A DNA stretch of 34,293 bases from a virus, in IMG/VR virus record IMGVR_UViG_3300035688_000306, positions 1 through 34,293 of that record; one strand, given 5' to 3'. The first letter of the stretch is position 1. Each line of letters starts with the position of its first letter. A model generated the notes under the pieces. It made no database searches and was not told the origin of the DNA. It was given only the letters and a program-made list of their open reading frames with translations. Position numbers and translations under genes: made by a program. Of this stretch, positions 1,188-29,053 are shown in pieces.

Positions 1188-1877
1188 ATGAAAGACAAAC
1201 AAGTTCATGCCGTACTAAATTTATACAATGACCGCGCATTCTTAGGCGCTTGCTTGGAAAGTTTAAAAGGCAACGTGGACTCCATCATAGTTGCTGACGG
1301 CGCATATGAACTGTACCTAAAACAGTACAGGCAATATCATCCTGATGCTCAACCATGGACAACCGATGGCAGTTTAGAAATCATTAAAGCTTTCAAGGAT
1401 TTGCCGCCAGTTAAAATAATAGAGTGTCCAGATGGTAAGCCGTGGCTAAACCAATGCGTGAAACGCACAGCCCTCATTGACGCGGTTCCAACAGGCGATT
1501 GGCTAGTGATAATTGACGCTGACAACATGCTCGTAGGCAATGTGGGCGAAGGCTTATATGAAATTCAAACCAGCGGCTGCGTAGTTGGCGGAACACCCTA
1601 CTACAATCCAGGATTACACACATCTTCACTGCGGACTTATTGGCATCCTTGGATTTACCAGAAAAGCGACGGAATGCACTATGACATGACACACTGGTTT
1701 CTACAGGACAAACATGGCAGAATAATTGAGCACACTTACCCCGTTTACTGGACTCAAAAATTTGTTTATGTTCACTTCAAAGCATTCAAGCTTCGAGAAA
1801 GGCTTCAGCCCCACGAGGACTACATGGACATTCTTGGTCCAAGAGGTTGGTTAGAGCCTGTAAAGGCGAAAAAATAA
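1188..1877 (+). CDS. GT-A (family 2-like) glycosyltransferase
   Basis: Predicted nucleotide-sugar glycosyltransferase of 229 residues. The N-terminus (VLNLYNDRAFLGACLESL) and following strand (SIIVADGAY) fit the nucleotide-binding half of the GT-A fold. A DxD-type metal site, IIDADNM, lies at residues 108-114 (Asp110, Asp112). The C-terminus, with HFKAFKLRERLQPHEDY, resembles the lid of small GT2 enzymes. The start has AAGGAAG 8 bases upstream. It is the first of five enzymes ending at 6037 that look like a glycan-building set, probably acting in the host cytoplasm on virion proteins or a host surface glycan. Acceptor and sugar are unknown. Confidence 0.8.
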   Translation: MKDKQVHAVLNLYNDRAFLGACLESLKGNVDSIIVADGAYELYLKQYRQYHPDAQPWTTDGSLEIIKAFKDLPPVKIIECPDGKPWLNQCVKRTALIDAVPTGDWLVIIDADNMLVGNVGEGLYEIQTSGCVVGGTPYYNPGLHTSSLRTYWHPWIYQKSDGMHYDMTHWFLQDKHGRIIEHTYPVYWTQKFVYVHFKAFKLRERLQPHEDYMDILGPRGWLEPVKAKK

Positions 1878-2575
1878 TGCAAGAAACAGTTAAGAAGTCA
1901 GACCGTGAAGCATGGTCTACGCTTAACTTAGGCAGAATGTTGTTCACTACAATGCCCGACTATGATCGTGCAGTCGCCGATGTGCTATGCCAACTGATTC
2001 AGCATAATAAGGAAACGATTGTCGAGTTAGGCTGTGGCGATGGCATCTGGCTAGAGTTTCTCGCAAGACTGTTTCCTGAAAAGAAATTCGTAGGCATCGA
2101 ATGGAACAAGCAGATACTATCGTATGCACGAGAAAAACGGCTTAAAGGCTTCAAAAACGTAGAGTTACACCAGAAGGACGCGACCAAATTCTTTGTGGAT
2201 TGCGACATGTTTTACGGTTTCGGCTTTATAGAGCATTTCAGTAATCCTGTTGAAGTTTTGAGAAAATGGACTGAGCATTTGTCGCCTAACGGCTTCGCAG
2301 TTTTAACCGTGCCGAACCTTCTCAACTCAATTTATGCTAGCAGAAGATTTAGTTTGCCCCTTCAGGAGATTCTCTACAAGAATGAAGTATCCACCGACGT
2401 TTACGGGTTGACAAAACTGTGGAGCCATAACACTTTCATCAAGAAAATCATGGATGCAGGCTTAGAAATACTGCATTTCAGGGTTATTGACGAGTTGGAA
2501 AATGAGAAGCCGTTGTTGGCTGTAGCGTTTAAACGACCCGTAAAAGAGGTGAAAAAATGGATAAAGACGAATTAA
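1877..2575 (+). CDS. Class I SAM-dependent methyltransferase
   Basis: A 232-residue methyltransferase starting at the ATG that overlaps the preceding stop (TAATG). Motif I is ELGCGDG at residues 50-56, the ribose-binding acidic residue is Glu75 in GIEWN, and a motif-II/IV region reads DMFYGFGFIEHF, followed by LSPNGFAVLTVPN as in Methyltransf_11/23-type sugar or small-molecule enzymes. Position between two glycosyltransferase genes suggests methylation of a glycan or of a sugar intermediate. A start 30 bases earlier is possible but lacks the tight stop-start coupling seen throughout this genome. Confidence 0.8.
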   Translation: MQETVKKSDREAWSTLNLGRMLFTTMPDYDRAVADVLCQLIQHNKETIVELGCGDGIWLEFLARLFPEKKFVGIEWNKQILSYAREKRLKGFKNVELHQKDATKFFVDCDMFYGFGFIEHFSNPVEVLRKWTEHLSPNGFAVLTVPNLLNSIYASRRFSLPLQEILYKNEVSTDVYGLTKLWSHNTFIKKIMDAGLEILHFRVIDELENEKPLLAVAFKRPVKEVKKWIKTN

Positions 2576-2856
2576 CGAAATGGATGAAAAATCATGGGAT
2601 AGACCAGCAACTTCGCGTGTGGGTGGCAAACGACATTGTTGGACTGAATGACTACACTATTCTTGAAGACTTAGTTACTACTGGAGTGTCAACTATTTCT
2701 ATAACGTTGAACCCTCAGAGCGGTCAACTTAGCTTCGCCAAAAATGAACCAGTGAAAATCGTTACGCCAGAGCCTATCCTTCCACATGTAGAAGTGGAAC
2801 CCGTTGAAACTCCATCCATTAAACCTAGGAGAAAATCAAAATTTGAAGATACTTAA
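2557..2856 (+). CDS. Hypothetical protein in glycan cassette
   Basis: A 99-residue protein with no recognised family. The first 45 residues look like a compact helical/strand domain (DELTKWMKNHG, LNDYTILEDLV). The last 30 are proline-rich and end basic (KPRRKSK), suggesting a disordered tail. A strong ribosome site (GAGGTG) precedes the ATG, and the gene overlaps the methyltransferase by 19 bases and the next gene's start by 14. It may be an adaptor for the enzymes around it; that is only a guess from position. Confidence 0.6.
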   Translation: MDKDELTKWMKNHGIDQQLRVWVANDIVGLNDYTILEDLVTTGVSTISITLNPQSGQLSFAKNEPVKIVTPEPILPHVEVEPVETPSIKPRRKSKFEDT

Positions 2857-3826
2857 CTTAAGTTTCAGCGACTTCGGCGGCGTAGCCTTCACGTTAAGCC
2901 ATGCCATGAACAAATATCATCCTGAACATTCAACCATAAACCTGCGCAGTCACAGCAGCTTTAACTATCCAACCATCGCGGAAATGCGAGATTACGATTT
3001 GAAATTATGCCGCAAAATCATCATGAAAGCCGACGTGATCCTATTCCATAGCGCAATAAGACCTTTCTTCCAAGGACTACACTTCAAACCTAAAGACATA
3101 CGCGACAAGAAGAAAATAATCTATTTCTTAGGTTCCGAACTCAGGCAAGTAGGTCCGCAACTGTTTGACCAAGCCAGAAAGTACCTTGGCAATTTTCAAG
3201 CTTTAATTGACATTCCAGACTTGTTCTTCTACACGAAAGAGAAAGTGAAGTGGCTTCCAAGTTGCAGGAGCTTCAGCGAAATCAGTAACATGTATGGCAG
3301 ATGCAACCAAGACACTAAAGCCCTAGAACAGTTTGAAGTGCCAAGGAAAAAAGTGATTTTCTGCCATGCGCCTTCCGACGAGTACAAGAAAGGAACAGAA
3401 TCATTCAGTAAAGTAATCACTGATGTTATGAAACTGAATCCAAACGTGAATTACATGCCCATCCGCAACCAAACATGGGCCAGTTGCCTGCAATCGTTAA
3501 GCATGGCAGACGTAGTATTTGACAGTGATCCGCCATTCGAGTATTCCTATGGCATGATAAGTGTCGAAGCCTCAATTTTCAAGATTCCAGTTGTCACAAA
3601 AATAAGCAACCGAGTAATCAAAAAAATCCATGAGGAAACAGGTTTGAACAGTCCCTTCATAACCTTTAGGGATGAGGATGACCTGTTTGAAAAGGCTTAC
3701 AGGCTGGGCAAGGATGAGGAAACGCGTAGAATGTTTGGAGAGATGACATACCGATACTGCAAACGATTGCATGATGAGAAGCCAGTAGCAGATAAGCTCC
3801 TCAGAATAATTGGTGAAATGGATTGA
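2843..3826 (+). CDS. GT-B glycosyltransferase (GT4-like)
   Basis: Predicted glycosyltransferase of the two-Rossmann GT-B type. The N-terminus (LKILNLSFSDFGGVAFTLS) matches the opening strand and glycine loop of GT4 enzymes. The C-terminal half has a strand KKVIFCHAPS followed by KGTESF, and a donor-site stretch (FEYSYGMISVEASIFKIPVV) where the conserved glutamate of the family is expected. I chose the TTG at 2843 because GGAG lies 11 bases upstream and the protein then begins exactly at the first strand. An ATG at 2804 is possible but would overlap the previous gene by 53 bases. Together with the GT-A enzyme it could extend a short glycan. Confidence 0.75.
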   Translation: MKILNLSFSDFGGVAFTLSHAMNKYHPEHSTINLRSHSSFNYPTIAEMRDYDLKLCRKIIMKADVILFHSAIRPFFQGLHFKPKDIRDKKKIIYFLGSELRQVGPQLFDQARKYLGNFQALIDIPDLFFYTKEKVKWLPSCRSFSEISNMYGRCNQDTKALEQFEVPRKKVIFCHAPSDEYKKGTESFSKVITDVMKLNPNVNYMPIRNQTWASCLQSLSMADVVFDSDPPFEYSYGMISVEASIFKIPVVTKISNRVIKKIHEETGLNSPFITFRDEDDLFEKAYRLGKDEETRRMFGEMTYRYCKRLHDEKPVADKLLRIIGEMD

Positions 3827-5067
3827 AACTCACGCTTATAAGACCATTTTATCATAGCATTTGGGAAAGCTTAGCGTGCGGATATATTGGCAGTTATTTA
3901 AAGGAATACTATCATGAAAAACCTTTGGAGCTACAGTTTTTTGATGGTTTCTTCGACAGTGATGAGGTAATTATTAAAGGTTCCGTAGATTCCGACTTCG
4001 TAGGATTTTCATGTACTTCCCCACAAATGAAGCATGCTTTGCGATTGGCTTGGAAAATCAAAGAGCGAAATCCGAAGGTGCAAACCGTTTTTGGTGGGCA
4101 TCATCCTTCAAGCCTTCAACGTGAAACTTTAGCCTATCCGCAAGTGGATATGGTTGTTGTTGGAGAGGGCGAAGTAGGACTACCAATGATACTTAGGCAT
4201 CCGAAAGACAAAACCGTTTATTTACCGCCGCCTATAGAAAACTTAGATATTATTCCTTTCCCAGATCGTAAACTGATTCATCAAGAGAGAACTTTAGCAT
4301 TAACTGAAAAGAACGATGGAGAACGTATAGCCTCTATGTTAAGTGGCAGAGTTTGCCCTTTCCATTGTGTTTTCTGCACTGGCGACCATGATGTTTTTGG
4401 AAATGTAGTTAGGAAACGTAGTGTGGAGAATGTTTTAGCTGAAATGCAACAGTTAATTAGTCAATGGAACATAGATTTTGTCAAGTTTGCAGATGCAGAA
4501 ATCAACACCACCTTGGAGTGGCTTAGAGAATTCTGCCGTGAAAAGATTGAGCGGGGCATAACAGTGCCTTGGGGTGGCAATATTCATGCGGCAATAATGG
4601 ATAAGCCTACGTTGGAACTTATGAAGAAGGCGAATTGCCGAGAAATCTGGATTGGTTGCGAATCTGGTTCGCCACACATCTTAAAGGAAATGGGAAAAGC
4701 CATAACAATCAAACAGATCAAACATGTGTTTACGTGGGCAAAGGAAGTTGGGATACGAAGACGTGCTTATTTCATGGTTGGTTTTCCCTCTGAAACACGA
4801 AGTGACTTTGACTTAACTCTGAAGTTGGCAGATGAGATTGACGCTGACACGTATGGCATGACAGTTCTCTGCCCTTATCCTGGAACTGCAGTCTATTCGG
4901 GGAAGTATGTGGATGTTGATTGGAGTTTAACTGACGAGTATAGTAATGATTTCTGGATAACAGACTCTTTTTCAAATGAAGAGTTGAAACAGTTACAAAG
5001 CGAATTTACCAAAAAGTTTCAAGATAGACTGTGTATTAGACAATCAAAAACCGTTCTAGCTTCATGA
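3823..5067 (+). CDS. B12-binding-type radical SAM enzyme
   Basis: A 414-residue enzyme with two parts. Residues 1-130 form a Rossmann-like B12-binding-type domain (VFGGHHPSS about 89-97; VVVGEGE 111-117). The radical SAM barrel follows, with the cluster motif CPFHCVFC (Cys178, Cys182, Cys185, the CX3CX2C spacing). WIGCESGSP and MVGFPSET are typical later barrel strands. Such enzymes perform methylations, epimerisations or rearrangements on unactivated carbons. The start is a TTG overlapping the previous stop (TTGA), with GGTG upstream. Beside glycosyltransferases and an aminotransferase it probably modifies a sugar. Whether cobalamin is actually bound cannot be told, since no DxHxxG motif is evident. 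Confidence 0.85.
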   Translation: MKLTLIRPFYHSIWESLACGYIGSYLKEYYHEKPLELQFFDGFFDSDEVIIKGSVDSDFVGFSCTSPQMKHALRLAWKIKERNPKVQTVFGGHHPSSLQRETLAYPQVDMVVVGEGEVGLPMILRHPKDKTVYLPPPIENLDIIPFPDRKLIHQERTLALTEKNDGERIASMLSGRVCPFHCVFCTGDHDVFGNVVRKRSVENVLAEMQQLISQWNIDFVKFADAEINTTLEWLREFCREKIERGITVPWGGNIHAAIMDKPTLELMKKANCREIWIGCESGSPHILKEMGKAITIKQIKHVFTWAKEVGIRRRAYFMVGFPSETRSDFDLTLKLADEIDADTYGMTVLCPYPGTAVYSGKYVDVDWSLTDEYSNDFWITDSFSNEELKQLQSEFTKKFQDRLCIRQSKTVLAS

Positions 5068-5086
5068 AGATAATTGAGGAAATGAA

Positions 5087-6037
5087 TTGACCATTCTAGA
5101 GACTGAGCAGAAGCAGATTCCTTTTTATGTTCTGCCTAAACTGTCTGAATCGCAGATTGAACATATTACGAATGAAGTTGCCAAAGTCATGCGAACAGGT
5201 CAGATTACAAACGGATTGAATGTTAGGCAACTGGAAGAGAGAACTAAGCAGTTACACGGTGTAGACTATGCTGTTGCGTGTTCATCAGCAACTCAAGCCA
5301 TGTGGATTGCGTTGAAAACCCTTAAAATAAAAGCTATAATGGTTCAAGCCTTCACTTGGAAAAGCCTTCAATACATACTGCCTTCTGAGACTTTCTATTG
5401 TGACATAAATAAAAACACTTGGCTTATGAATCAACAAAGCAATGATTTAAATGCCTTAATAGTCACGCATACTTTCGGCAACACAGATTTAGCAGAACAA
5501 AATAGTGAGAATCAGACAATAATTTATGATGGCGCTTACTCGTTAGGCGCGGATTTGCCAGAAATTGGCGATGCAACTGTCCTAAGCTTGACAGCGACCA
5601 AAACTGTAACTTCATGTGAAGGCGGATTAATCCTCACAAACAACCGTAAACTAGCAAACGAAGCTGAAGAAATAAGAGATAAATGCAGTCGCATGTCAGA
5701 ACTGAACGCAATCGTAGGCTTAACATATTGTGGTATGCTTGATGAAATTCTAGCTAAGAAAAAGCGCATTTTCGATTATTACAATGCTCATTTGCCGTTC
5801 CGAAGCCAGAAAACATCAAGATATGGCACAAACTATGGGTTCTACGGTTGCCTAGTTCCTAATCGGGATGTGTTACTTGACAACTTGAAACGTAAGGTGG
5901 ATGTGCGAATCCGATATGAACCATTGCAAAAAGGGTTTCCAGCAACTGATGAGATTGCGTCTAAGATTGTTATTCTTCCATGCTATCCAGATTTAGACCC
6001 GTCAACCGTTGTGAATTATGTTAATGAGGTGACTTAA
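5087..6037 (+). CDS. DegT/DnrJ/EryC1 sugar aminotransferase
   Basis: A 316-residue fold-type I PLP enzyme, somewhat shorter than the usual 360-390 residues. Motifs in order: ITNGLNVRQLE (substrate entry region), CSSATQAMWIAL (cofactor phosphate loop), IIYDGAYSLGA with Asp148 for the pyridine nitrogen, and the Schiff-base region TATKTVTSCEGG with Lys172. Key residues appear intact, so it may be active in converting a keto-sugar nucleotide to an amino-sugar. Start is TTG 5087 with GAGG 7 bases upstream. It closes the sugar cassette. The shortened C-terminal part may narrow or change the substrate pocket. Confidence 0.85.
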   Translation: MTILETEQKQIPFYVLPKLSESQIEHITNEVAKVMRTGQITNGLNVRQLEERTKQLHGVDYAVACSSATQAMWIALKTLKIKAIMVQAFTWKSLQYILPSETFYCDINKNTWLMNQQSNDLNALIVTHTFGNTDLAEQNSENQTIIYDGAYSLGADLPEIGDATVLSLTATKTVTSCEGGLILTNNRKLANEAEEIRDKCSRMSELNAIVGLTYCGMLDEILAKKKRIFDYYNAHLPFRSQKTSRYGTNYGFYGCLVPNRDVLLDNLKRKVDVRIRYEPLQKGFPATDEIASKIVILPCYPDLDPSTVVNYVNEVT

Positions 6038-7538: not shown

Positions 7539-8075
7539 ATGGATGATATTCCTTTACGTTTGATACCTTTGCGTCTCATTGATTTAGCTAACCAAAAAAT
7601 CGGCAAACTAACAGTTTTGGAAAGAACAGGGAATCAAGGAACAAGAGTTGTCTGGAAATGTCGTTGCGAATGTGGCAATATTGTAAATGTAACGGCACAT
7701 GAACTTCGTAATGGGCAAATATCATGTGGTTGTGCCCATACTGGTCGTCCTTCCAAACATGGTCTATCTAACAGCCATGAATACCATATTTGGGCAGATA
7801 TGCGGAGGCGATGCAAATCTCCAACAGCTTTTGCGTACGCTCGTTATGGAGGACGTGGTATCGTTGTCTGTGAACGATGGGATAAATCCTTTCTATCATT
7901 TATTCAGGATATGGGAAAACGACCGAGTCCACGACATACTCTTGATCGAATAAATAACGATGGGAACTATGAACCTTCAAACTGCCAATGGGCAACACGA
8001 AAAACGCAAGCGAATAATCGGCATAAGAGAGCATTGCCAAACCGAAGCATGATTAATGGCAGATTCATCAAATAA
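7539..8075 (+). CDS. HNH homing endonuclease
   Basis: A 178-residue free-standing HNH nuclease of the type common in phage genomes. N-terminal DLANQKIGKLTVLERTG begins a DNA-binding zinc-like domain with CRCECG and a second Cys pair (SCGC). The nuclease part has the residues expected in this family: HTLDRINNDGNYEPSNCQWAT, with ATRKTQANN after it. It has no convincing ribosome site and may be translated by coupling to the ten-codon relic leader. A T-rich stretch follows the stop. It probably cuts copies of the locus that lack it and spreads by repair. Confidence 0.88.
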   Translation: MDDIPLRLIPLRLIDLANQKIGKLTVLERTGNQGTRVVWKCRCECGNIVNVTAHELRNGQISCGCAHTGRPSKHGLSNSHEYHIWADMRRRCKSPTAFAYARYGGRGIVVCERWDKSFLSFIQDMGKRPSPRHTLDRINNDGNYEPSNCQWATRKTQANNRHKRALPNRSMINGRFIK

Positions 8076-17410: not shown

Positions 17411-17487
17411 TTGTCGCACCTCCTCATTTTTGCGTGGCAAACGATGTCATGGTGCCAGATGCCTTCACAATGTTTCTTCTTCACCAT
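17407..17487 (-). CDS. 26-residue Cys/His microprotein
   Basis: A 26-codon frame with a good GGAGG site, overlapping neighbours at both ends. Three Cys and three His residues (CEGIWHHDIVCHAK then RRC) could form a single zinc knuckle. Alternatively it is a translational relay that keeps ribosomes on the operon. Confidence 0.45.
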   Translation of the reverse strand: MVKKKHCEGIWHHDIVCHAKMRRCDK

Positions 17488-18701
17488 TTCAAAACCTCCA
17501 AAATCTGCTCAAACAATTTATCTTCATCTTTATCCGTTTCATAGGGCAATGATACAACATGTACGCCTTGTTTCGTCAGTTGCTCCCTTATCATATCATC
17601 CTTGTCTTCTCTGCCCTGATGGACTGGACCGTCAATGTAAATGGCCAAGTTTTGCTTTCTGAAATAGAAGTCAGGAGTGGTTTTCTGCAAACAAAATTCA
17701 ATATCCGTTTCTGGCGTGAAACCTTTGCCACTTAATCGTAATAGTAGTTTTTCTTCCATTTTGCTATGTTGTGGTTGCATCACGGCTTTGCGTTGTTGCC
17801 AAGTTTCTTGGGGTTTGAATGTGGGTTCCAGTTCTAGTTTACGCACTGGTAAAGGCTTGTCTTTTCCAGCACATTCTGGACAAATTAAAAGGTTGTCAAC
17901 AAAATGCATTTTGGTTCGTTCTGTTTGTTTTCCACATTTTTCGCATGGTCGCATTCCAAGCAAGTATGTTTTGTAGATTTGTCCTGAATTTGCTTTTGGA
18001 ATTATGGTTTCTTGAGTCTTAAGAGGGGTTTCCACGCGTGGAAACTCATTCTTTTCTTCCCATCCTTTCTTTTGTGCTTCACTTAATACCTTGTCTTTTT
18101 TCTCTGGAGGCATATAATTATAGATTGTACTTTTACCGATTCCCGTGATTTCCGCAATCTGCTCCACAGTTAAACCCGAGCCAATCAACAATCCAATGTC
18201 GTTTTTCATCTCTTCACTTGAATAATGCCTACGGCAAAAGTTCACGGTCATTCGAGCTAAGGCCCGATCCACGGGCGTTTTAATCTGGTCATTCTTAACT
18301 GTCCAAGCCTTTGGATTCACTTTCAATCTGTGAAAACCGTCAATAATTATGCCCTCTGCATCTTGTAAGCATGGCACAAGTTGTCCAAGTTTTCCTTTCA
18401 AGCTTTTGCTGAGAGCATACTCGCCTTGTTCTTCAATAGGTGCCAAAGGTTCTTTAGGTTCTTCCTTTTCTTTTTGTTGTTTGGGTAAGGTGAAGATGGC
18501 AAACTTTGTCGTTTCATCCTTCCTATAACCTCCTCCCTTGTCGCTTATTGCCCGCAAGATTTTGCTGAAAGTAGGTCCATCCAAATAGCGATAAGCCTTA
18601 ATCACCCATTCCCCGTTCTGTTCTGTGATGATGAATCTGTCCGGAATTTCTTTTTCTGTGTAGCCTACTGCGTCTTGCAAAAGTTTCAAAGCTTCATTCA
18701 T
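17481..18701 (-). CDS. ParB-like/HTH/zinc-ribbon/Vsr-like nuclease fusion
   Basis: A 406-residue multidomain protein, largest in the leftward arm. Residues 1-75 form an unassigned domain. About 95-150 resemble the ParB N-terminal domain (GIIIDGFHRL, 117-126). A helix-turn-helix follows (LTVEQIAEITGIGKSTIYNY, about 177-196). A zinc ribbon uses Cys253, Cys256, Cys274 and Cys277. The C-terminus is PD-(D/E)XK-like of the Vsr/DUF559 type: Glu317, TPDFYF with Asp344, and LAIYIDGPVHQ with Asp357 and His361. It could bind a specific site and nick or cut it, for example in genome partition, replication start or packaging. The ParB/HTH/nuclease parts are visible by motif; the combined function is inference. 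Confidence 0.75.
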   Translation of the reverse strand: MNEALKLLQDAVGYTEKEIPDRFIITEQNGEWVIKAYRYLDGPTFSKILRAISDKGGGYRKDETTKFAIFTLPKQQKEKEEPKEPLAPIEEQGEYALSKSLKGKLGQLVPCLQDAEGIIIDGFHRLKVNPKAWTVKNDQIKTPVDRALARMTVNFCRRHYSSEEMKNDIGLLIGSGLTVEQIAEITGIGKSTIYNYMPPEKKDKVLSEAQKKGWEEKNEFPRVETPLKTQETIIPKANSGQIYKTYLLGMRPCEKCGKQTERTKMHFVDNLLICPECAGKDKPLPVRKLELEPTFKPQETWQQRKAVMQPQHSKMEEKLLLRLSGKGFTPETDIEFCLQKTTPDFYFRKQNLAIYIDGPVHQGREDKDDMIREQLTKQGVHVVSLPYETDKDEDKLFEQILEVLKW

Positions 18702-19776: not shown

Positions 19777-20002
19777 TTTTTTTCAACTCCTCCTTTTTGT
19801 AGATTGGAACTTGTGAACCTTCAGATTGTTTAAATGGTAAATCATTCCATAGGCAAATCATCCATCTATTTGGATAATCTAAAACATAGTTCCGTGTTCC
19901 ACAACCGTTACATCGAAAACCATAATGAGTTTTAAATGTGTCACTGGAATTGCATTTTAGGCATCTGTCTATTCCAAATGGAGATTCAACAAAATTAATC
20001 AC
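19769..20002 (-). CDS. Zinc-ribbon protein
   Basis: A 77-residue protein with CLKC and CNGC separated by 14 residues (RCLKCNSSDTF; GFRCNGCGTRNYV), a zinc ribbon like those in transcription factors. It starts at GTG 20002, overlapping the integrase stop (GTGA), with AGGAGATGA upstream. Confidence 0.65.
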   Translation of the reverse strand: MINFVESPFGIDRCLKCNSSDTFKTHYGFRCNGCGTRNYVLDYPNRWMICLWNDLPFKQSEGSQVPIYKKEELKKIE

Positions 20003-20925
20003 TTTTCTATCATCTCCTTTTTTTCTGGTTTAAATCGGCATTCTGAAGCGCATGAGGGTAAAGGCGAGTTTTTCTGTGTCCAACTTCTACAGAGAGCAAG
20101 ATTAGAACAGCCATTACAGATTGTTTCTCCCGCAACCCAACCCACTTGCTTTGAATTCCTCGTATTAAATTGAGAGACATCATTGAGTTGGAGTTGAGTC
20201 GTTTCGGGAACTAATGGACTGTTTTGGACGCCGTCGAACTCTCTTTGCACATCCTCAAAAAAGCTCAGTTTAGAAAGGTAAACTTGCGTAACCGCTAGAC
20301 TCTTATGCCTTAAAATTCGTTGAAGAGTAACCAAACTTTTCTTTTCATCATAAACCCAATGTGCAGCAAAATAATGCCGTAAAATCCGTGGATTAAAACC
20401 TTTAACTCCTACCTTTTCTGCTATGTCATGGATGATTTGCCATATTTCGACGCGACTCAGAGGTTCATCGGCTTTAACCTTGGTCCAACTGCCTCGGTGC
20501 GTGAACACGAGGCCCTCACATCTTTCTCCAACCAAGTCTTTAACCAATTGTAGGCTTAACATGTCTAGGGGCAGGGGGAAAAACGTGTATTTTTTGCTGT
20601 CTAACACTTGGAAACTTCTGTTTTCAAAATCAATGTGTTCTATGCGTAAACTGCGAATTTCGCTGTTTCTTAACCCTATTTTCATGGGAATGTGAAGTAT
20701 CAAAAAGTCTCGGGGGTTTGCGTGTTGTTGTGCGTAGGCGTGTACATGTTCCACATCACTCCGTTTAATAACTATTGCTTCACCCGCCCAATCCCGCCTA
20801 TGTGTCCCTCCGTTGGTCATGAGAAGCTTAACCGTTAAGCGCATTTTGGATTTAACAACTTTGTTCATACTCCAATTCTGAATAGGGGACTGAGAGAGAG
20901 ATTGGTGTAAGTGGTTCTCCATCAT
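19999..20925 (-). CDS. Tyrosine recombinase/integrase
   Basis: A 308-residue site-specific recombinase. Catalytic residues visible: Arg86 (MKIGLRNSEIRSL), Lys111/112 (DSKKYTFFPL), the box PRILRHYFAAHW with Arg183, His207 (RILRHKSLAVTQ) and nucleophile Tyr216 (TQVYLS). The usual first His of the HxxR box is Arg180. The part before the catalytic domain is only about 50 residues, so a full core-binding domain is missing or divergent. A Cys-rich tail (CNGCSNLALC, CASEC) probably binds zinc. It makes the virus temperate or integrative. No att site can be assigned. Confidence 0.85.
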   Translation of the reverse strand: MMENHLHQSLSQSPIQNWSMNKVVKSKMRLTVKLLMTNGGTHRRDWAGEAIVIKRSDVEHVHAYAQQHANPRDFLILHIPMKIGLRNSEIRSLRIEHIDFENRSFQVLDSKKYTFFPLPLDMLSLQLVKDLVGERCEGLVFTHRGSWTKVKADEPLSRVEIWQIIHDIAEKVGVKGFNPRILRHYFAAHWVYDEKKSLVTLQRILRHKSLAVTQVYLSKLSFFEDVQREFDGVQNSPLVPETTQLQLNDVSQFNTRNSKQVGWVAGETICNGCSNLALCRSWTQKNSPLPSCASECRFKPEKKEMIEK

Positions 20926-22689: not shown

Positions 22690-22965
22690 ATGTCACATCG
22701 TGGAGTTAGGAGCCAACGGGGCAAACTGAAACAAGCAGTTAGACGTTACATATTCACAACTAGCTTTCAAGACCCCATTTTAGCTGAATCCGTGTGCAGA
22801 GTAAACCGGGAAGACCTGTTGGCTTATGCTTCAACTTTCCTCGTAGAAATGCAACTAAGTGATGTTCCTGATTTGAATATTGGCGTGACTGTGGGTGATG
22901 TGCCAAATGTTGAGAAAGGCTTAATTTTAAGTGATTCAAGAGGACGAGGAGTGTTTCAAAAATAA
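22690..22965 (+). CDS. First rightward gene, hypothetical
   Basis: A 91-residue protein with a basic N-terminus (SHRGVRSQRGKLKQAVRRY) and an acidic, strand-rich C-terminal half (NIGVTVGDVPNVEKGLIL). It is promoter-proximal in the rightward arm. Its stop lies in an A-run directly joined to the next frame, which lacks a normal start, so a longer frameshifted product is possible. No family is recognised. Confidence 0.6.
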   Translation: MSHRGVRSQRGKLKQAVRRYIFTTSFQDPILAESVCRVNREDLLAYASTFLVEMQLSDVPDLNIGVTVGDVPNVEKGLILSDSRGRGVFQK

Positions 22966-23198: not shown

Positions 23199-23597
23199 AT
23201 GCGTAAACTCGCAATCCTCGGCTTAATCAGCCTAATAGCCATAGTAGTCTTAGTTACGTTAGCAGCAATCAATTTTATGGGCATCCGAGACACAATATAT
23301 GGCGGAATCCAAGGAACCATTCTACAGCCGGGACACGATTGGATTGTGAATAGTTGGATTCAAATAGGCGCTCTCGGGTTCACTTACATTGCAGCCACAG
23401 CTTTGGCTTTAGCAATAGGTGGCGGCTTGATTATGGTGTTCATTGTTTACGGTTTGTTCTGGCAAAAACTGATACAAGGCAAAATCTTACATAAAACCAC
23501 ACCTTCACCAGTAGCTCCTATGCAACGCACGTTAAGCACACCCTTAACACCAACACAAGAAACAGTTCCCATTCCAGAGAAAAAAGAGGAAACATAA
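23199..23597 (+). CDS. Two-span membrane protein, GTPase cassette
   Basis: A 132-residue membrane protein. A first hydrophobic span (LAILGLISLIAIVVLVTLAA) and a second (about residues 55-90, including ALALAIGGGLIMVFIVYGLF) bracket a loop with GHDWIVNSW. The C-terminal 40 residues are Pro/Thr-rich and probably disordered. GGAGGTGA precedes the ATG. The stop overlaps the next ATG, coupling it to the GTPase gene. It may anchor or report to that protein. Confidence 0.7.
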   Translation: MRKLAILGLISLIAIVVLVTLAAINFMGIRDTIYGGIQGTILQPGHDWIVNSWIQIGALGFTYIAATALALAIGGGLIMVFIVYGLFWQKLIQGKILHKTTPSPVAPMQRTLSTPLTPTQETVPIPEKKEET

Positions 23598-24586
23598 TGT
23601 CAGCACAAAAATTTATTGACGCTTTAAACCCGTTCAAAACTAAAGGCCCAGTACCACAACAAGATGCGACTCCAGAACATTTGTACCGTTACAAGAACCG
23701 TTGGAGTCTGATCGGAACCGTAGGCAGTGGCAAATCAACAATCGCCGCCTTACTCATCTTAGCCGCTAGAACACTGAGCTTTCAACATCGGCCTTTCTAC
23801 TGTGATGTCGTGGAAAACACAAGCAACATTATGGAAGACGTAAGCAACCTGCAACGGGGCAGATTTCCAAAGAAAACAGGCGCCTACAACAAATACGCGA
23901 CAGAGTCAGGGTTAATGTTGTGGTGGGACGAAATGTGGAGTGGCAAAAGCCTACACATCCCAATTTGCGATGTGGCAGGCGAAGACCTGGAAATAGGACA
24001 TAGAGGCGTAGCACTAACCCCTGGTCCAGCCGCGTACACTCAAGCCAAGATTTTACAGGAATATGTGCGTGAAAGTGATGGGTTGATTTTGGTTGCGCCA
24101 GCCAGCAAAGGGTTACTATTCAAAAATGACGTGCAAATCGAAAGGGAAGAGGCGGACATAGCTTTTGATCCAGACGTGAATTTGGCTCGCATTTTTGGGG
24201 GCATCATAGATTACAAGCGCACGCATCAGTCAAGTAAACCGTTGAAGGGCCTCGTGATTATGGTGAGCAAATGGGATTTGATGCAGCCGTATGCGGATGA
24301 AATGAACATGGACATTTTAACGCAGCAGGGTAGGGAACGGTTTTTGGAAGTGTGTTTTCCCTTCACGAAAATGAAGATTAAAGCTATGCAACGGGTTTTC
24401 AACACGAAAGTTTTGTTTGTACCCAGCTTCGTAGAAGTGGAACGTGATGGGAATGGTAACATAGTGTTTTGGGATCAAGAAACTAAACGGCAACCAAAAA
24501 TCAAAGTTGGCGATAATCGCATGCCTTCGTATAGTGCTGGTTGGATGGCGGATACGATTAACTTTTTGGGGCAATTCGCACTTTGA
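23597..24586 (+). CDS. TRAFAC-like P-loop GTPase (double-GTPase family-like)
   Basis: A 329-residue NTPase. G1/Walker A is GTVGSGKST (residues 40-48), G3 is ICDVAGE (Asp125, Gly128), and a G4-like motif is VSKWD (Ser224-Asp227, in place of NKxD). LILVAPAS after G3 fits a GTPase core strand. The whole resembles the DO-GTPase (double-GTPase) proteins described by the Aravind group in NTP-driven conflict systems, where they sit beside GAP1 proteins. The next gene looks like a GAP1 N-terminal domain. In a virus it could sense or block host signalling, or act in exclusion of other viruses. Family placement is by motif and neighbourhood and needs a profile search. Confidence 0.7.
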   Translation: MSAQKFIDALNPFKTKGPVPQQDATPEHLYRYKNRWSLIGTVGSGKSTIAALLILAARTLSFQHRPFYCDVVENTSNIMEDVSNLQRGRFPKKTGAYNKYATESGLMLWWDEMWSGKSLHIPICDVAGEDLEIGHRGVALTPGPAAYTQAKILQEYVRESDGLILVAPASKGLLFKNDVQIEREEADIAFDPDVNLARIFGGIIDYKRTHQSSKPLKGLVIMVSKWDLMQPYADEMNMDILTQQGRERFLEVCFPFTKMKIKAMQRVFNTKVLFVPSFVEVERDGNGNIVFWDQETKRQPKIKVGDNRMPSYSAGWMADTINFLGQFAL

Positions 24587-24957
24587 GAGTTGAACAGTTC
24601 TATTACGGACCAAAACCAAACAGCGGCCTACAATACGAACAAACCAGTGGCGTATCCACTCTCTTGCCAGAAGACAAAATAATCGAACTCTACAACATTG
24701 GAGATCAAACACGCAAACCCATAGAAGTAGTGCAGCTTCACCAAACCTATTTTGGACCGCCCATAATCAGCGTTACCTTCGCAGAACCGACAGTTGATGA
24801 TACGGGCAGAAATACTATGCGAAACCGCACATTCCTAATTTCCTTGAAAGAAATAACTAACGAGTTGCTTCACACGTTGCGTCCTCTCTCCAATCTTCCC
24901 TTGGAACAAAAGTTGGAGCCTTTAGAAATTGACAAGTTCACAATCAAAAAGCGTTAA
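24583..24957 (+). CDS. GAP1-N-like GTPase-associated protein
   Basis: A 124-residue protein starting at TTG 24583, overlapping the GTPase stop (TTGA). It opens with VEQFYYGPKPNSG and has SVTFAEPTVDDTGRNTMRNR followed by TFLISLKE, which I relate to the N-terminal domain of GTPase-associated protein 1 (opening Q-hYYg; later D-x-x-GR and a hydrophobic strand). Full GAP1 proteins are much longer; here only the N-terminal module is present. It probably regulates or partners the adjacent GTPase. The homology claim is tentative. Confidence 0.55.
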   Translation: MRVEQFYYGPKPNSGLQYEQTSGVSTLLPEDKIIELYNIGDQTRKPIEVVQLHQTYFGPPIISVTFAEPTVDDTGRNTMRNRTFLISLKEITNELLHTLRPLSNLPLEQKLEPLEIDKFTIKKR

Positions 24958-25471
24958 TTGGAAGGCTGCCATATTTTGGGGACTCATAATAGGCTTAGTC
25001 TGTTTTGCAGTTTACCAGTATCGTGGACCAATCTTGGCTTGGATTGCAAAACCAACGTTTGACTTCTCTATCCTTCAAAACTTAACTCTTGACAAAATCG
25101 TGGCTTTCCTCAAAGACTATGGACTTATAATAACTGGAGTTGCCACGACTTTCACGTTTATTTATGGCTTGTACCAGAAACGTCAAGCAAACAAAAATGC
25201 GTTGCAACTTCTGAATTCGCAGCAGAATGCTCAATCGGAAGTCACTAAGGCTTATGGTTTGGCTGACCAATACAAAACCCAAGCAGAAACCTACAAGTCT
25301 CAAGTTGAACAACTGGGCAAAAACGATTTGGGCGAATCATTAAAAGAAGCACAAGACCAAGTCACACAGAAACAAGAGGAAATAAACAGTTTGAAAAGTC
25401 AACTTGAAGCAGTAAACAACCTCGTACTTTTGAAGGATACAAAAGTTATCATAAAAGAAGTGGTGAAATAA
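24929..25471 (+). CDS. Membrane protein with C-terminal coiled coil
   Basis: A 180-residue protein starting at TTG 24929 with GGAG 11 bases upstream. Two hydrophobic spans (AAIFWGLIIGLVCFAVYQY and YGLIITGVATTFTFIYGLY) are followed by a long polar helix (QNAQSEVTKAYGLADQYKTQ and onwards) with heptad pattern to the end. It would place a coiled coil on one face of the membrane, suitable for sensing or bridging. It overlaps the GAP1-N-like gene by 29 bases. Confidence 0.7.
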   Translation: MTSSQSKSVNWKAAIFWGLIIGLVCFAVYQYRGPILAWIAKPTFDFSILQNLTLDKIVAFLKDYGLIITGVATTFTFIYGLYQKRQANKNALQLLNSQQNAQSEVTKAYGLADQYKTQAETYKSQVEQLGKNDLGESLKEAQDQVTQKQEEINSLKSQLEAVNNLVLLKDTKVIIKEVVK

Positions 25472-25782
25472 TGGCTAAGCAAGAGCAACGTGTAGCCATA
25501 GAAATCCGAGGCTTATGGAAAGTCATAAAATATTTTGGCATCACATTTTTGGTTGGAGCCCTAGTCAGCTACGTTGGAACCCGCTTTTTCAACCTAGATT
25601 TGCTACTTATCACAATCGAATTACAGAACCTTTGGCTAATCATCCCCGAAGGCACAATACTTTTCGGAGCCGTTTGGCTTTGGAACTGGAGCAGAACAAG
25701 CGAAAAACACAAGCGACAAAAACAAGCCCAAGACCAGTTACAAACCTTAATTAAAGAGGCTGGGGCTGAAAAGAAAAAATGA
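25471..25782 (+). CDS. Two-span membrane protein with basic coiled tail
   Basis: A 103-residue protein with hydrophobic spans at YFGITFLVGALVSYVGTRFF and around LWLIIPEGTILFGAVWLW, then a polar tail (EKHKRQKQAQDQLQTLIKEA). Its start overlaps the previous stop (TAATG). Architecture echoes the gene upstream in smaller form. Probably part of the same membrane complex; a holin-like role cannot be excluded. Confidence 0.65.
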   Translation: MAKQEQRVAIEIRGLWKVIKYFGITFLVGALVSYVGTRFFNLDLLLITIELQNLWLIIPEGTILFGAVWLWNWSRTSEKHKRQKQAQDQLQTLIKEAGAEKKK

Positions 25783-25791
25783 GGAACTTAA

Positions 25792-26115
25792 TTGTCTAAT
25801 GACTGGATAAACGAGGAACGCATATTCAACCACAAATGCTCATTAGTCTACGAGGCTTACCTAGAAATATTGTACCCCGGCTGGATAGACCATTATCAAG
25901 ACGGCATTGTAGATGCACTTTTAACTTACTGGAAAACCGAAAAGGTAGATCGTATTCACGCTCAAATCGTAGCTACAAAATGGTTAATTCCCACCTTAAA
26001 CAGAATTAAACCGACACCCGCATGGATATTTTATGGCGCACCAACCAGCACCGTGCAATGTCCACACTGCGGCAAATCGATGAGTGTGCCAAAAGACTGG
26101 AAAGGAATGATATAA
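25792..26115 (+). CDS. Hypothetical protein with C-terminal CPHC
   Basis: A 107-residue protein from TTG 25792, behind GAGGAA. The first 80 residues are helical and aromatic-rich (YEAYLEILYPGWIDHYQDGI), the end carries QCPHCGKSMSVP, half of a zinc ribbon. The partner Cys/His may be HKC near the start. No family is recognised. Confidence 0.55.
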   Translation: MSNDWINEERIFNHKCSLVYEAYLEILYPGWIDHYQDGIVDALLTYWKTEKVDRIHAQIVATKWLIPTLNRIKPTPAWIFYGAPTSTVQCPHCGKSMSVPKDWKGMI

Positions 26116-26201: not shown

Positions 26202-26315
26202 ATGCCAGAAGAAATTTGGACTTGCCTAAAATGCGGCGCAGTCAACCTAAGGTTAACATGGAAATGTAGAATATGCAGAAACCAAAACGAGATGATTGTT
26301 AATGCAAGAAGTTAG
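26202..26315 (+). CDS. 37-residue zinc-ribbon microprotein
   Basis: MPEEIWTCLKCGAV then a second pair CRIC, so two CxxC pairs 14 residues apart. It overlaps the methyltransferase start by 14 bases. No clear ribosome site is seen. Same kind of miniprotein as in the leftward arm, here in the rightward arm. Confidence 0.55.
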   Translation: MPEEIWTCLKCGAVNLRLTWKCRICRNQNEMIVNARS

Positions 26316-27114
26316 ACATCAAGAAATTATGGATACGATTCAGAAAGTAAAGTTGATTCTTCAAAATTTACATCTTAATACTTTTCAGAAATATCGTGAA
26401 GCTGGACAAGAAATTATAGGGTCAGGTTACAAAAAACGTAAATGGAACTCGGAGCAACGTAAAGAAGCATTAAAAGAATGGGCGATTTCTCGACAAACGT
26501 TCGACAATATAGTAAATCTAGGCACATTAACAGAAATAGAATTCGCTAACGTCGTTAGCCAATTTCCATCAGTTCATGCTTGGGCAAATCAGAGAACAAT
26601 AACTCCAATCAAACCCATGCCCCTTGGTGAGTTTGACATAATTTACGCTGACCCACCTTGGAAATATACATTTGATTTCTTAACATCAAGTCCAAATAAC
26701 CATTATTCTATTTTGAAGACACAAGAAATTTGTGAACTACAAATTCCTACCTCTGAGAATGCTGTTTTATTCTTATGGGCTACAAATCCTCTCTTAGAAG
26801 ATGCATTACAAGTTATGAAGGCATGGGGTTTTCAGTACAAGACTAACATAGTTTGGGTAAAAGACAAATTCGGAATAGGCTTCTACGTTAGAGGACAACA
26901 TGAATTACTCCTTATTGGAACAAAAGGCAATGTTCACCCTCCTGAAGAATCAAACCGTTTTTCCTCAGTGGTTAATGCTGACGTAAAAGAACATAGTGAG
27001 AAGCCAGAGGAAATATACAATCTTATCGAGGCAATGTACCCAGATAAAACATATCTCGAATTATTTGCGAGAAAACAACGACTTAAATGGAAATCTGGGG
27101 GTAATGAAGTTTAA
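26302..27114 (+). CDS. MT-A70-type adenine-N6 methyltransferase
   Basis: A 270-residue SAM-dependent methyltransferase. The catalytic DPPW (YADPPWKY, about residues 115-122) defines the MT-A70 group. ENAVLFLWATNPLL and WGFQYKTNIVWVKDKFGIGFY are the usual following strands. The end (EKPEEIYNLIEAMYPDKTYLELFAR) is the closing SAM-binding part of the fold. The N-terminal 100 residues (GYKKRKWNSEQRKEALKEWA) are helical and may recognise DNA. Viral members usually methylate adenines in viral DNA, guarding against restriction or marking it for packaging. ATG 26302 is preferred over TTG 26296. Confidence 0.85.
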   Translation: MQEVRHQEIMDTIQKVKLILQNLHLNTFQKYREAGQEIIGSGYKKRKWNSEQRKEALKEWAISRQTFDNIVNLGTLTEIEFANVVSQFPSVHAWANQRTITPIKPMPLGEFDIIYADPPWKYTFDFLTSSPNNHYSILKTQEICELQIPTSENAVLFLWATNPLLEDALQVMKAWGFQYKTNIVWVKDKFGIGFYVRGQHELLLIGTKGNVHPPEESNRFSSVVNADVKEHSEKPEEIYNLIEAMYPDKTYLELFARKQRLKWKSGGNEV

Positions 27115-27346
27115 CTTGAGAAAAGGCAACAAAGGAAATAACGATTTAGTTTTAGATGTTGCCACTGATGGCTGGGAGCAACTAAGCTACCAAGACCTAT
27201 TCAAATTGATTAAATTGCTCTATGTTAATGAAGATAAAAGTTATCCACCTCCAAACAAAGGAAGTAAAATGTTGCTAGAAGCTTTAGACTTTTTGCGAGA
27301 GCATAGTGTAGAAGAAACAATAGCAACCTTCCAAATAAAGAAATGA
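27104..27346 (+). CDS. Hypothetical protein before TerS
   Basis: An 80-residue protein starting at ATG 27104 (GGGGGT upstream) inside the end of the methyltransferase gene. Helix-forming segments SYQDLFKLIKLLYVN and MLLEALDFLREHSVEETI suggest a small helical protein. The stop overlaps the TerS start (ATGA). No family is recognised. Confidence 0.55.
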   Translation: MKFNLRKGNKGNNDLVLDVATDGWEQLSYQDLFKLIKLLYVNEDKSYPPPNKGSKMLLEALDFLREHSVEETIATFQIKK

Positions 27347-27759
27347 GATGTCTCAAAATGTCACTTTCTAAACAAACCTTAACACGATTACCAACAATCA
27401 AAGAAGGCATACTAAAAGGATTAAACTACGATGAAATAGCAGCGACATGCAAACTTAAAAACCACAGAACCATAGAGCGCGATGTTAAAGCATGGGTTGA
27501 TAGTGGCGAATTTGAAACATGGCTCAAAGTAGAATTCCTAACCACTTATCCTGAAATCAAAGCGGAAGATAAGATTTTAGCGTTTCAAGAAATAGCCAAA
27601 CTCGTAGGAAAAATGTTAACCAGAAAAATTGAAAGGAAAGAACAAATAGAAATTAGCGAGGAAATAGTGACGGTTAATGTCACAGAAAACGAAGACGAAA
27701 TCTTATCCAAGGCAAGTGCTATACTTGCCCGAAAGGACAGATTTAATAAAATTCACTGA
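27343..27759 (+). CDS. Putative terminase small subunit
   Basis: A 138-residue protein with an N-terminal helix-turn-helix (LNYDEIAATCKLKNHRTIERDV) and a charged C-terminal helix (KMLTRKIERKEQIEISEEI). This is the plan of small terminase subunits, which bind the packaging site and oligomerise. It lies directly before, and overlaps, the large terminase gene. ATG 27358 is an alternative start. Confidence 0.7.
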   Translation: MRCLKMSLSKQTLTRLPTIKEGILKGLNYDEIAATCKLKNHRTIERDVKAWVDSGEFETWLKVEFLTTYPEIKAEDKILAFQEIAKLVGKMLTRKIERKEQIEISEEIVTVNVTENEDEILSKASAILARKDRFNKIH

Positions 27760-29053
27760 GGCATTGGGCTATGTCAACGCACCATTTCACGTTGAATGGT
27801 ACAACTACCTGCAAAATACGTTCAGTCCGTTTAAAGCTGAACCAGAAAAAGAAAAACGGTTTCTACTCTTATGGCCTAGAGGACACGCCAAAACTGAAAC
27901 TACAACCATTAACTATACCAGTTGGCTTGTCGGAAACTACCCAGACATTCACATTAACATTGTCACTAAAACCGCAAGCCTCGCAGAAGAAATCTTATTA
28001 GCATTAATCACACGTTTCGAATCTGATGAGCGTTATAGAACAATATTTGGAGATCTGAAACCGCAAAACGCTAAAAAATGGACAAGCCAAGAACTGATAG
28101 TGGCCCGCGGTGAAATCAGCAAAAACCCAACACTCAAAGCAACAGGTCTAATGGGACCGATAACTGGCGGACGCAGCGACTTAATCATTTGCGACGACAT
28201 CATAGATGAAGAAAATGTCAGAACATCACTCCAGCTTGAGAAAGTTAATACATGGTTCAATAAGGTTTTAATACCTACACTATACCCTTGGGGAGGCATC
28301 ATTGCAATTGGAACCCGTTGGAGTTACGCTGACATCTATGCGGACCTACTATCTAAATGGCCACACGACATGAAACAAGCCATTCAACAAGACGGAACCG
28401 CTTTATGGCCTGAATACTGGAGTCTACAAAAACTTGAGGAACGGAGAAACGAAATAGGCACAATCTTCTTCAACTGCCAATACCAAAACGACCCGACAAG
28501 CATGCAGGGCGACTTGTTAAAAAGTGAATGGTTGCATCCATGGGAGTCGCTGCCACTTGGCAACGGAATCAAATATGCGGGAGTTGACCCAGCACTGGGC
28601 GAAGGTGACTTACAAGGCATAGCCACAATGTCGTATGACTCAACAAACAAGCAAGCCTACTTAGAAGACGTGTGGGCAGAACGAACAAGTTTTCCCATGT
28701 TTCTACAGAAAATTCAGCAGTTACATGCCTTGCACCACTACGCCAAAATCTATATTGAATCTAACGCTTTCCAAAAAGTCTTAACCTACGTCAATGAACT
28801 CCGTGGTTTGCCAATAGTGCCAACTGTCACTGCGCATGATAAACAGCAACGTTTCATAAGCATGAGTAGCCATTTTGAATCGAAAAGAGTCCTAGTAAAT
28901 CCGTTGTTGGATAGGAAAAGCGAGTTCTGGCTTGAATGGGTGCAGTTTCCACGCGGACAACATGACGACGCTTTAGATTCTGTGGAAATAGTGACTCGCA
29001 ACATCTTGTATCGTGGAGAAGTAGAAGCTACATCAGGTAAACTACAATGGTAA
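27677..29053 (+). CDS. Terminase large subunit
   Basis: A 458-residue packaging motor. The ATPase part has LLWPRGHAKT (residues 64-73, Walker A-like) and LIICDD (169-174, Walker B with acidic pair). IAIGTRW after it fits motif III. The RNase-H-like nuclease part has GVDPAL (Asp304), IESNAF (Glu361) and GQHDDALDS (Asp430, Asp431). It translocates DNA into the prohead and cuts it. ATG 27677 gives an 83-base overlap with TerS; GTG 27716 is an alternative. Confidence 0.92.
   Translation: MSQKTKTKSYPRQVLYLPERTDLIKFTEALGYVNAPFHVEWYNYLQNTFSPFKAEPEKEKRFLLLWPRGHAKTETTTINYTSWLVGNYPDIHINIVTKTASLAEEILLALITRFESDERYRTIFGDLKPQNAKKWTSQELIVARGEISKNPTLKATGLMGPITGGRSDLIICDDIIDEENVRTSLQLEKVNTWFNKVLIPTLYPWGGIIAIGTRWSYADIYADLLSKWPHDMKQAIQQDGTALWPEYWSLQKLEERRNEIGTIFFNCQYQNDPTSMQGDLLKSEWLHPWESLPLGNGIKYAGVDPALGEGDLQGIATMSYDSTNKQAYLEDVWAERTSFPMFLQKIQQLHALHHYAKIYIESNAFQKVLTYVNELRGLPIVPTVTAHDKQQRFISMSSHFESKRVLVNPLLDRKSEFWLEWVQFPRGQHDDALDSVEIVTRNILYRGEVEATSGKLQW

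What the first reader, a model, noticed from the sequence alone, without database searches (positions are those of the whole stretch)
23199..25782. Viral GTPase / GAP1-N-like / membrane-protein cassette
Five overlapping genes encode a two-span membrane protein, a GTPase with G1 GTVGSGKST, G3 DVAGE and G4-like SKWD, a short protein resembling the GAP1 N-terminal module, and two membrane proteins with coiled-coil tails. Known context: double-GTPase and GAP1 proteins were described as parts of NTP-driven conflict systems in cellular genomes. A compact version in the early rightward arm of a tailed virus would be unusual. Possible roles are superinfection exclusion, blocking of a host GTPase defence, or membrane remodelling for entry or exit.
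Basis: partly seen in the sequence, partly recalled or inferred. Interest (0 to 1): 0.82.

Follow-up and report, generated by a model that had tools for sequence, protein, structure and literature searches.

The report
Membrane GTPase switch cassette in viruses
A group of little-known tailed viruses all carry, just before their DNA-packaging genes, a block of genes for a GTP-powered molecular switch, a matching regulator and membrane anchors; it looks like a stripped-down viral version of a switch known from cellular conflict systems, and it may help the virus act on its host's membrane.

Summary
Five overlapping genes at 23199-25782 encode a TM protein, a GTPase, a ~124-aa protein and two more TM proteins. 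All 18 virus contigs found (the window plus 17) carry the GTPase with the small gene downstream, and TerL further downstream, although TerL itself belongs to at least four lineages 15-23% identical. The GTPase is a remote DO-GTPase1 (family consensus 36.8 bits, cut-off 27; one member 30.1; the window protein alone 13.0). The small protein's consensus has one Pfam hit, GAP1-N1, over its whole length but below cut-off (13.8 of 27 bits); its confident model is a longin/PAS-like fold with an invariant Asp and Arg in one turn. GTPase and small protein diverge together (r=0.84), the TM neighbours less so (~0.6), virion genes not. In the relative L076 the five genes are replaced as a block between 75-88% identical flanks. 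Best reading: a reduced, membrane-tethered DO-GTPase/GAP1-N-type switch acting late, probably in egress (inferred); superinfection exclusion is the main rival. None among 50,697 phage records; host unknown.

The parts
22690..22965 (+). Basic 91-aa protein with C-terminal motif SRGRGxFQK; flanks the block upstream, not part of it
   Evidence: homologues before the block in most relatives; 83% identical in L076 although the block is not
23199..23597 (+). Two-span TM protein with Pro-rich tail (TM-up)
   Evidence: TM spans predicted; TM gene directly upstream of the GTPase in the relatives where that gene is held; divergence tracks GTPase r=0.58, n=9
23597..24586 (+). TRAFAC-type GTPase, remote DO-GTPase1; G1 at residues 40-47, G3 DVAGE 125-129, G4 SKWD 224-227
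   Evidence: profiles; fold; motifs
24583..24957 (+). Stand-alone GAP1-N1-like domain, longin/PAS-type (profilin-like) fold; conserved D72, R76, N81, T83
   Evidence: fold; profile; co-divergence; motif
24929..25471 (+). TM protein with long, probably coiled-coil C-terminal part (TM-CC)
   Evidence: divergence tracks GTPase r=0.61, n=8
25471..25782 (+). Small membrane protein with charged helical tail
   Evidence: 67% identical in L001; only 22% in L076
25792..26115 (+). 107-aa protein with C-terminal CxxC zinc-ribbon-like motif; right flank of the block
   Evidence: 85% identical in L076 while the block is not
27343..27759 (+). HTH small-terminase-like protein
   Evidence: cluster c3 in 14 of 16 contigs, directly before TerL
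27677..29053 (+). Terminase large subunit: landmark downstream of the block
   Evidence: phrog_38 E 9.5e-95; TerL downstream in 18 of 18 contigs

Best explanation
The block is a reduced, virus-resident relative of the DO-GTPase/GAP1 pair. Shown by computation: a GTPase homologous to DO-GTPase1; a linked, co-diverging small protein with a confidently predicted longin/PAS-type fold and a weak full-length GAP1-N1 match; membrane proteins on both sides; a fixed position at the head of the packaging/virion operon. Inferred: the GTPase cycles between GTP and GDP states; the small domain binds it and regulates it, perhaps as a GAP with the invariant Arg76 as a finger, as proposed for Arg78 of the NPRL2 longin domain; the TM proteins tether the pair to the host membrane. 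Since the block occupies the place that lambdoid phages use for lysis genes, the most likely step is a switch-controlled membrane event late in infection, that is lysis or egress. My probabilities: GTPase homology about 0.9; small protein as its regulatory partner about 0.7; late egress or lysis role about 0.35-0.4. The stated confidence is for the whole chain apart from the exact late step.
For: DO-GTPase1: family consensus 36.8 bits (cut-off 27, E 3.5e-9); L010 30.1 bits; L029 26.7 and L025 (DO-GTPase2) 26.4, just below. G3 with Glu in 18 of 18, the Walker B glutamate given as a DO-GTPase trait (PMC7159879). Fold: YcjX Z 13.9 over 269 residues, Asgard RagA-like GTPase Z 13.5. Small protein: model pLDDT 87; VIA list holds PAS/LOV domains and longin domains of Rag/Rab regulators FNIP2, NPRL2, MON1-CCZ1, Lst4 and TRAPP at Z 5-6.8; consensus hits only GAP1-N1, 2-95 against 1-99/101, E 0.072 among 24,736 families, and L032 alone hits it too. 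Pairing: Mantel r=0.84, 0 of 5000 permutations; TerL 0.13, portal 0.06, c5 -0.08. Unit: in L076 DNA similarity stops at 22961 and resumes at 25802, flanking proteins 83-85%, the five block proteins 22-40%. Slot: directly before TerS/TerL, as lysis genes in lambdoid late operons (PMC8022706). No endolysin or holin among the window ORFs tested. Some relatives add a TM-anchored Ig/NEW3-like protein.
Against: The window GTPase alone scores only 13.0 bits for DO-GTPase1, and the window's small protein has no Pfam hit. GAP1-N1 matches are far below cut-off; real GAP1-N members could not be fetched for a profile-profile test. Longin Z values are in the range the tool calls possibly just a common arrangement, and PAS domains score alike. 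Three relatives lack the G4 lysine and L017 has a changed P-loop, so GTP specificity is unproven there. Co-divergence is partly what physical linkage alone would give. No experimental link to lysis; block replacement between close relatives also fits an exclusion or conflict role.
Confidence: 0.6

Rival explanations
1. Superinfection exclusion or inter-virus conflict: the block is a membrane complex that senses or blocks a competing virus, with the GTPase as trigger. Alleles differ between close relatives because each must not act on its own virus.
For: Whole block replaced between flanks 75-88% identical; parent family proposed as a conflict system (PMC7159879); the virus carries an integrase.
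Against: Present in 18 of 18 contigs whichever TerL they have, unlike usual optional exclusion genes; lies at the head of the virion operon, not in the integrase/regulatory arm; no toxin or effector domain found.
Confidence: 0.25
2. Virion morphogenesis or packaging accessory: the GTPase complex docks capsids, terminase or tail parts at the host membrane during assembly.
For: Constant placement upstream of TerS/TerL.
Against: GTPase divergence is unrelated to that of TerL (r=0.13), portal (0.06) or c5 (-0.08), and the block is kept while TerL lineages are swapped, so no tight fit to virion parts.
Confidence: 0.15
3. Viral decoy or inhibitor of a host DO-GTPase/GAP1 defence: the viral pair poisons the host complex.
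For: Homology to a conserved component of the cellular systems, and probably to two.
Against: GTPase motifs are conserved as in an active enzyme, and the virus brings its own TM partners; hosts and their systems are unknown.
Confidence: 0.1
4. An unrelated P-loop NTPase with chance neighbours.
For: Individual members score weakly against several P-loop families.
Against: Family consensus passes the DO-GTPase1 cut-off; order conserved in 18 contigs; TRAFAC-type fold.
Confidence: 0.03

Closest known systems
DO-GTPase/GAP1 'GTPase-centric' systems (Kaur et al. 2020, PMC7159879; Pfam PF19975, PF19993, PF20012, PF20013)
   Same: GTPase with Walker B Glu; small partner gene directly downstream; TM components; Ig-like exported domain in some relatives, where GAP1-N2 systems have FNIII
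   Different: one GTPase, no zinc ribbons; partner is only a GAP1-N-sized domain without M and C; no GASH, tubulin, HSP70 or effector seen; lies in the packaging operon of tailed viruses
YcjX GTPase (PDB 6NZ4-6NZ6)
   Same: best fold match, Z 13.9 over 269 residues
   Different: 12-13% identity; Pfam YcjX family not hit
Rag GTPases with longin-domain regulators (GATOR1 NPRL2, FLCN-FNIP)
   Same: RagA-like GTPase among best fold matches; longin domains of NPRL2 and FNIP2 among best matches of the partner; invariant Arg in a turn, compare NPRL2 Arg78 and FLCN Arg164 (PMC7464330)
   Different: no sequence homology detected; PAS folds match equally; the Arg correspondence is my interpolation from alignment end points, not a residue alignment
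Lysis cassette of lambdoid phages
   Same: head of the late operon, before terminase; membrane proteins; overlapping genes
   Different: no endolysin, holin or spanin homology; contains a GTPase

Membership tests
DO-GTPase1 (PF19975) | score over the curated cut-off (27 bits) | tested here: met
   family consensus 36.8 and L010 30.1 bits; the window protein alone is below, 13.0 bits
DO-GTPase1 (PF19975) | conserved glutamate in Walker B (G3) | tested here: met
   [DE]x[AS]GE in 18 of 18 keyed sequences
DO-GTPase systems | two paralogous GTPases (38% of systems) and N-terminal zinc ribbons (60%); frequent, not obligatory | tested here: not met
   single GTPase per contig and no zinc ribbon at its N-terminus
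GAP1-N1 (PF20012) | score over the curated cut-off (27 bits) | tested here: inconclusive
   below cut-off: consensus 13.8 bits, whole length, only hit; L032 14.4 bits. No profile-profile test was possible
GAP1-N2 (PF20013) | profile match | tested here: inconclusive
   no match in the window or in any small protein scanned; weak relatives could be missed
GAP1 protein | three domains N-M-C | tested here: not met
   110-141 aa, one domain
GTPase-centric conflict system | GASH or FNIII component plus variable effector | tested here: inconclusive
   no GASH or effector hit among proteins scanned; Ig/NEW3-like protein in some relatives
Longin domain | b-b-a-b-b-b-a profilin-like fold | tested here: inconclusive
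   model has this order; longin Z 5-6.8, PAS up to 8.0
Phage lysis module | holin, endolysin or spanin homologue; causes lysis | not testable with these tools
   no such homologue seen in tested ORFs; function needs experiment

The most novel reading that the evidence does not exclude
A lineage of tailed viruses uses a GTPase with a longin-like GAP, tethered to the host membrane, as the switch that times or drives virion release. That would be a GTP-switched egress machine, and would make GAP1-N1 a prokaryotic longin-type GTPase regulator.
Probability: 0.25. Interest if true: 0.9.

Novelty: new variant of a known kind. Interest (0 to 1): 0.7.

Why it matters
Neither the GTPase nor the small protein has a credible relative among 50,697 public phage records by tblastn, and DO-GTPase/GAP1 pairs were described from cellular genomes. 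A conserved viral minimal version (GTPase plus one small domain) would be the simplest system in which to test what the DO-GTPase/GAP1 pair does. If the hosts are archaeal, it would also be a candidate for the egress machinery that is missing from archaeal tailed viruses: a 2015 review states that no holin gene had been identified in isolated archaeal viruses (PMC4456609).

Tried and rejected
Genome-contig scans with A1 and A10 gave no relative; plasmids gave no credible relative, the Rhizobium hit lying beside an IS5 element with no GTPase ORF. Attempts to obtain true GAP1-N members through plasmid records failed, so no hhalign test was possible. Host: no tRNA genes, no TTTATATA boxes, sigma-70 and terminator scans at shuffle level; host left open. 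PDB sequence profile of the small protein: no significant hit. Packaging or pilus ATPase for the 23597 gene: no support. BFVD: generic matches to giant-virus Ras-type and dynamin-type GTPases only. TerLs of relatives might have been one divergent family: pairwise identities show at least four lineages.

Full report
WHAT IS THERE. The window is a 34,293-base virus record of a tailed virus: terminase (phrog_38, E 9.5e-95), portal (phrog_9232, E 2.8e-5), major head protein (phrog_544, E 1.4e-10) and integrase (phrog_216, E 7.9e-21). The five ORFs at 23199-25782 exist as described and overlap. They start the rightward operon that continues into MT-A70, TerS, TerL and portal; the integrase lies on the other strand at 19999-20925. 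The block is therefore not early-arm cargo by position, though no expression data exist.

CONSERVATION. A terminase query brought 17 loci; the six with enough upstream sequence all carry the GTPase. GTPase queries brought further contigs, 18 in all with the window. In 16 of 16 clustered contigs the GTPase, the small protein and TerL occur on one strand in this order; the two added later, L076 and L078, agree. A TM gene directly upstream and a TM/coiled-coil gene downstream are usual; gene calls differ in detail and some neighbours were not clustered. TerL falls into at least four lineages 15-23% identical, so the block is kept when the packaging module changes.

ONE UNIT. Pairwise identities of GTPase and small protein are correlated (Mantel r=0.84, 0 of 5000 permutations). 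For the TM neighbours r is 0.58 and 0.61 on 8-9 genomes, for TerS 0.26, TerL 0.13, portal 0.06, c5 -0.08. Linkage alone could give some of this. In L076 the flanking proteins are 83% and 85% identical to the window's, but the five block proteins only 34, 40, 24, 25 and 22%; detectable DNA similarity ends at 22961 and resumes at 25802. The exchanged segment coincides with the reported block, though a boundary drawn from loss of similarity is approximate.

THE GTPASE. Window protein alone: DO-GTPase1 13.0 bits, below cut-off. Relatives: L010 30.1 bits, over the cut-off of 27; L029 26.7 (DO-GTPase1) and L025 26.4 (DO-GTPase2), just below. Consensus of 18: 36.8 bits, E 3.5e-9. Motifs: in the keyed comparison G1 is GxxxxGK[ST] in 17 of 18 and GTRGSSKT in L017; G3 is [DE]x[AS]GE in all 18; G4 is [ST]KxD in 15 and TAxD in L010, L018 and L032 (the G4 pattern caught wrong stretches in L033 and L036, whose G4 is LTKWD). 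The model (pLDDT 78) matches YcjX (Z 13.9), a RagA-like Asgard GTPase (13.5) and EF-Tu/Arf types.

THE SMALL PROTEIN. No Pfam hit for the window copy and only chance-level hits for most relatives. L032 hits GAP1-N1 at 14.4 bits, and the consensus of 18 has GAP1-N1 as its only hit, co-linear over 2-95 against 1-99 of 101 positions, 13.8 bits, E 0.072. Two subgroup consensuses did not hit it (same call). The two positive tests are not independent, and both are far below the cut-off of 27. Because GAP1-N had been named beforehand, a hit to just this family among 24,736 is more telling than its E-value suggests, but it is not proof. The model (pLDDT 87) has order b-b-a-b-b-b-a. VIA-align lists PAS/LOV domains and longin domains of GTPase regulators side by side, so the fold is profilin-like; calling it longin rather than PAS rests on the GTPase context. 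Asp72 (18 of 18) and Arg76 (17 of 18 by column; the remaining sequence has an Arg one place away) sit in the b4-b5 turn. NPRL2 and FLCN carry their proposed catalytic Arg in a longin loop (PMC7464330); the correspondence is inference.

MECHANISM. Shown: homology of the GTPase, linkage, co-divergence, membrane neighbours, position. Inferred: GTP cycle, direct binding, GAP action, membrane tether, late timing, egress. The place directly before terminase is that of lysis genes in lambdoid late operons (PMC8022706, and general knowledge of lambda), and no endolysin or holin was found among the window ORFs tested. Block replacement between close relatives is also what an exclusion function would give; I rank that second.

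NOVELTY. The parent system is known (PMC7159879). New, as far as these collections show, are its viral residence, its reduction to GTPase plus a GAP1-N-sized domain, and its fixed place in the packaging operon. Neither protein has a credible relative in 50,697 phage records. I did not find it described in the papers searched, which do not cover all literature.

Noticed in passing
1188-6037: Cargo between capsid and tail genes: glycosyltransferases, a methyltransferase, a B12-binding radical SAM protein and a DegT-type aminotransferase, a possible surface-sugar modification set.
   Followed up: no
26296-27114: MT-A70-type adenine methyltransferase inside the packaging operon (E 1.1e-25); homologues in G009 and G011.
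   Followed up: no
7539-8075: HNH endonuclease (phrog_374, E 1.1e-65) within the structural region.
   Followed up: no
17481-18701 (-): HTH plus zinc-ribbon-like plus DUF559 protein, cluster found in 10 of 16 contigs.
   Followed up: partly
L013:5182-5610 and equivalents: TM-anchored Ig/NEW3-like proteins near the block in several relatives (Ig_VWA7 E 8.3e-6); none recognised in the window block.
   Followed up: partly
L054:11233-12819: In relative G007, a DNA methylase and an Mrr-type nuclease domain in one protein.
   Followed up: no
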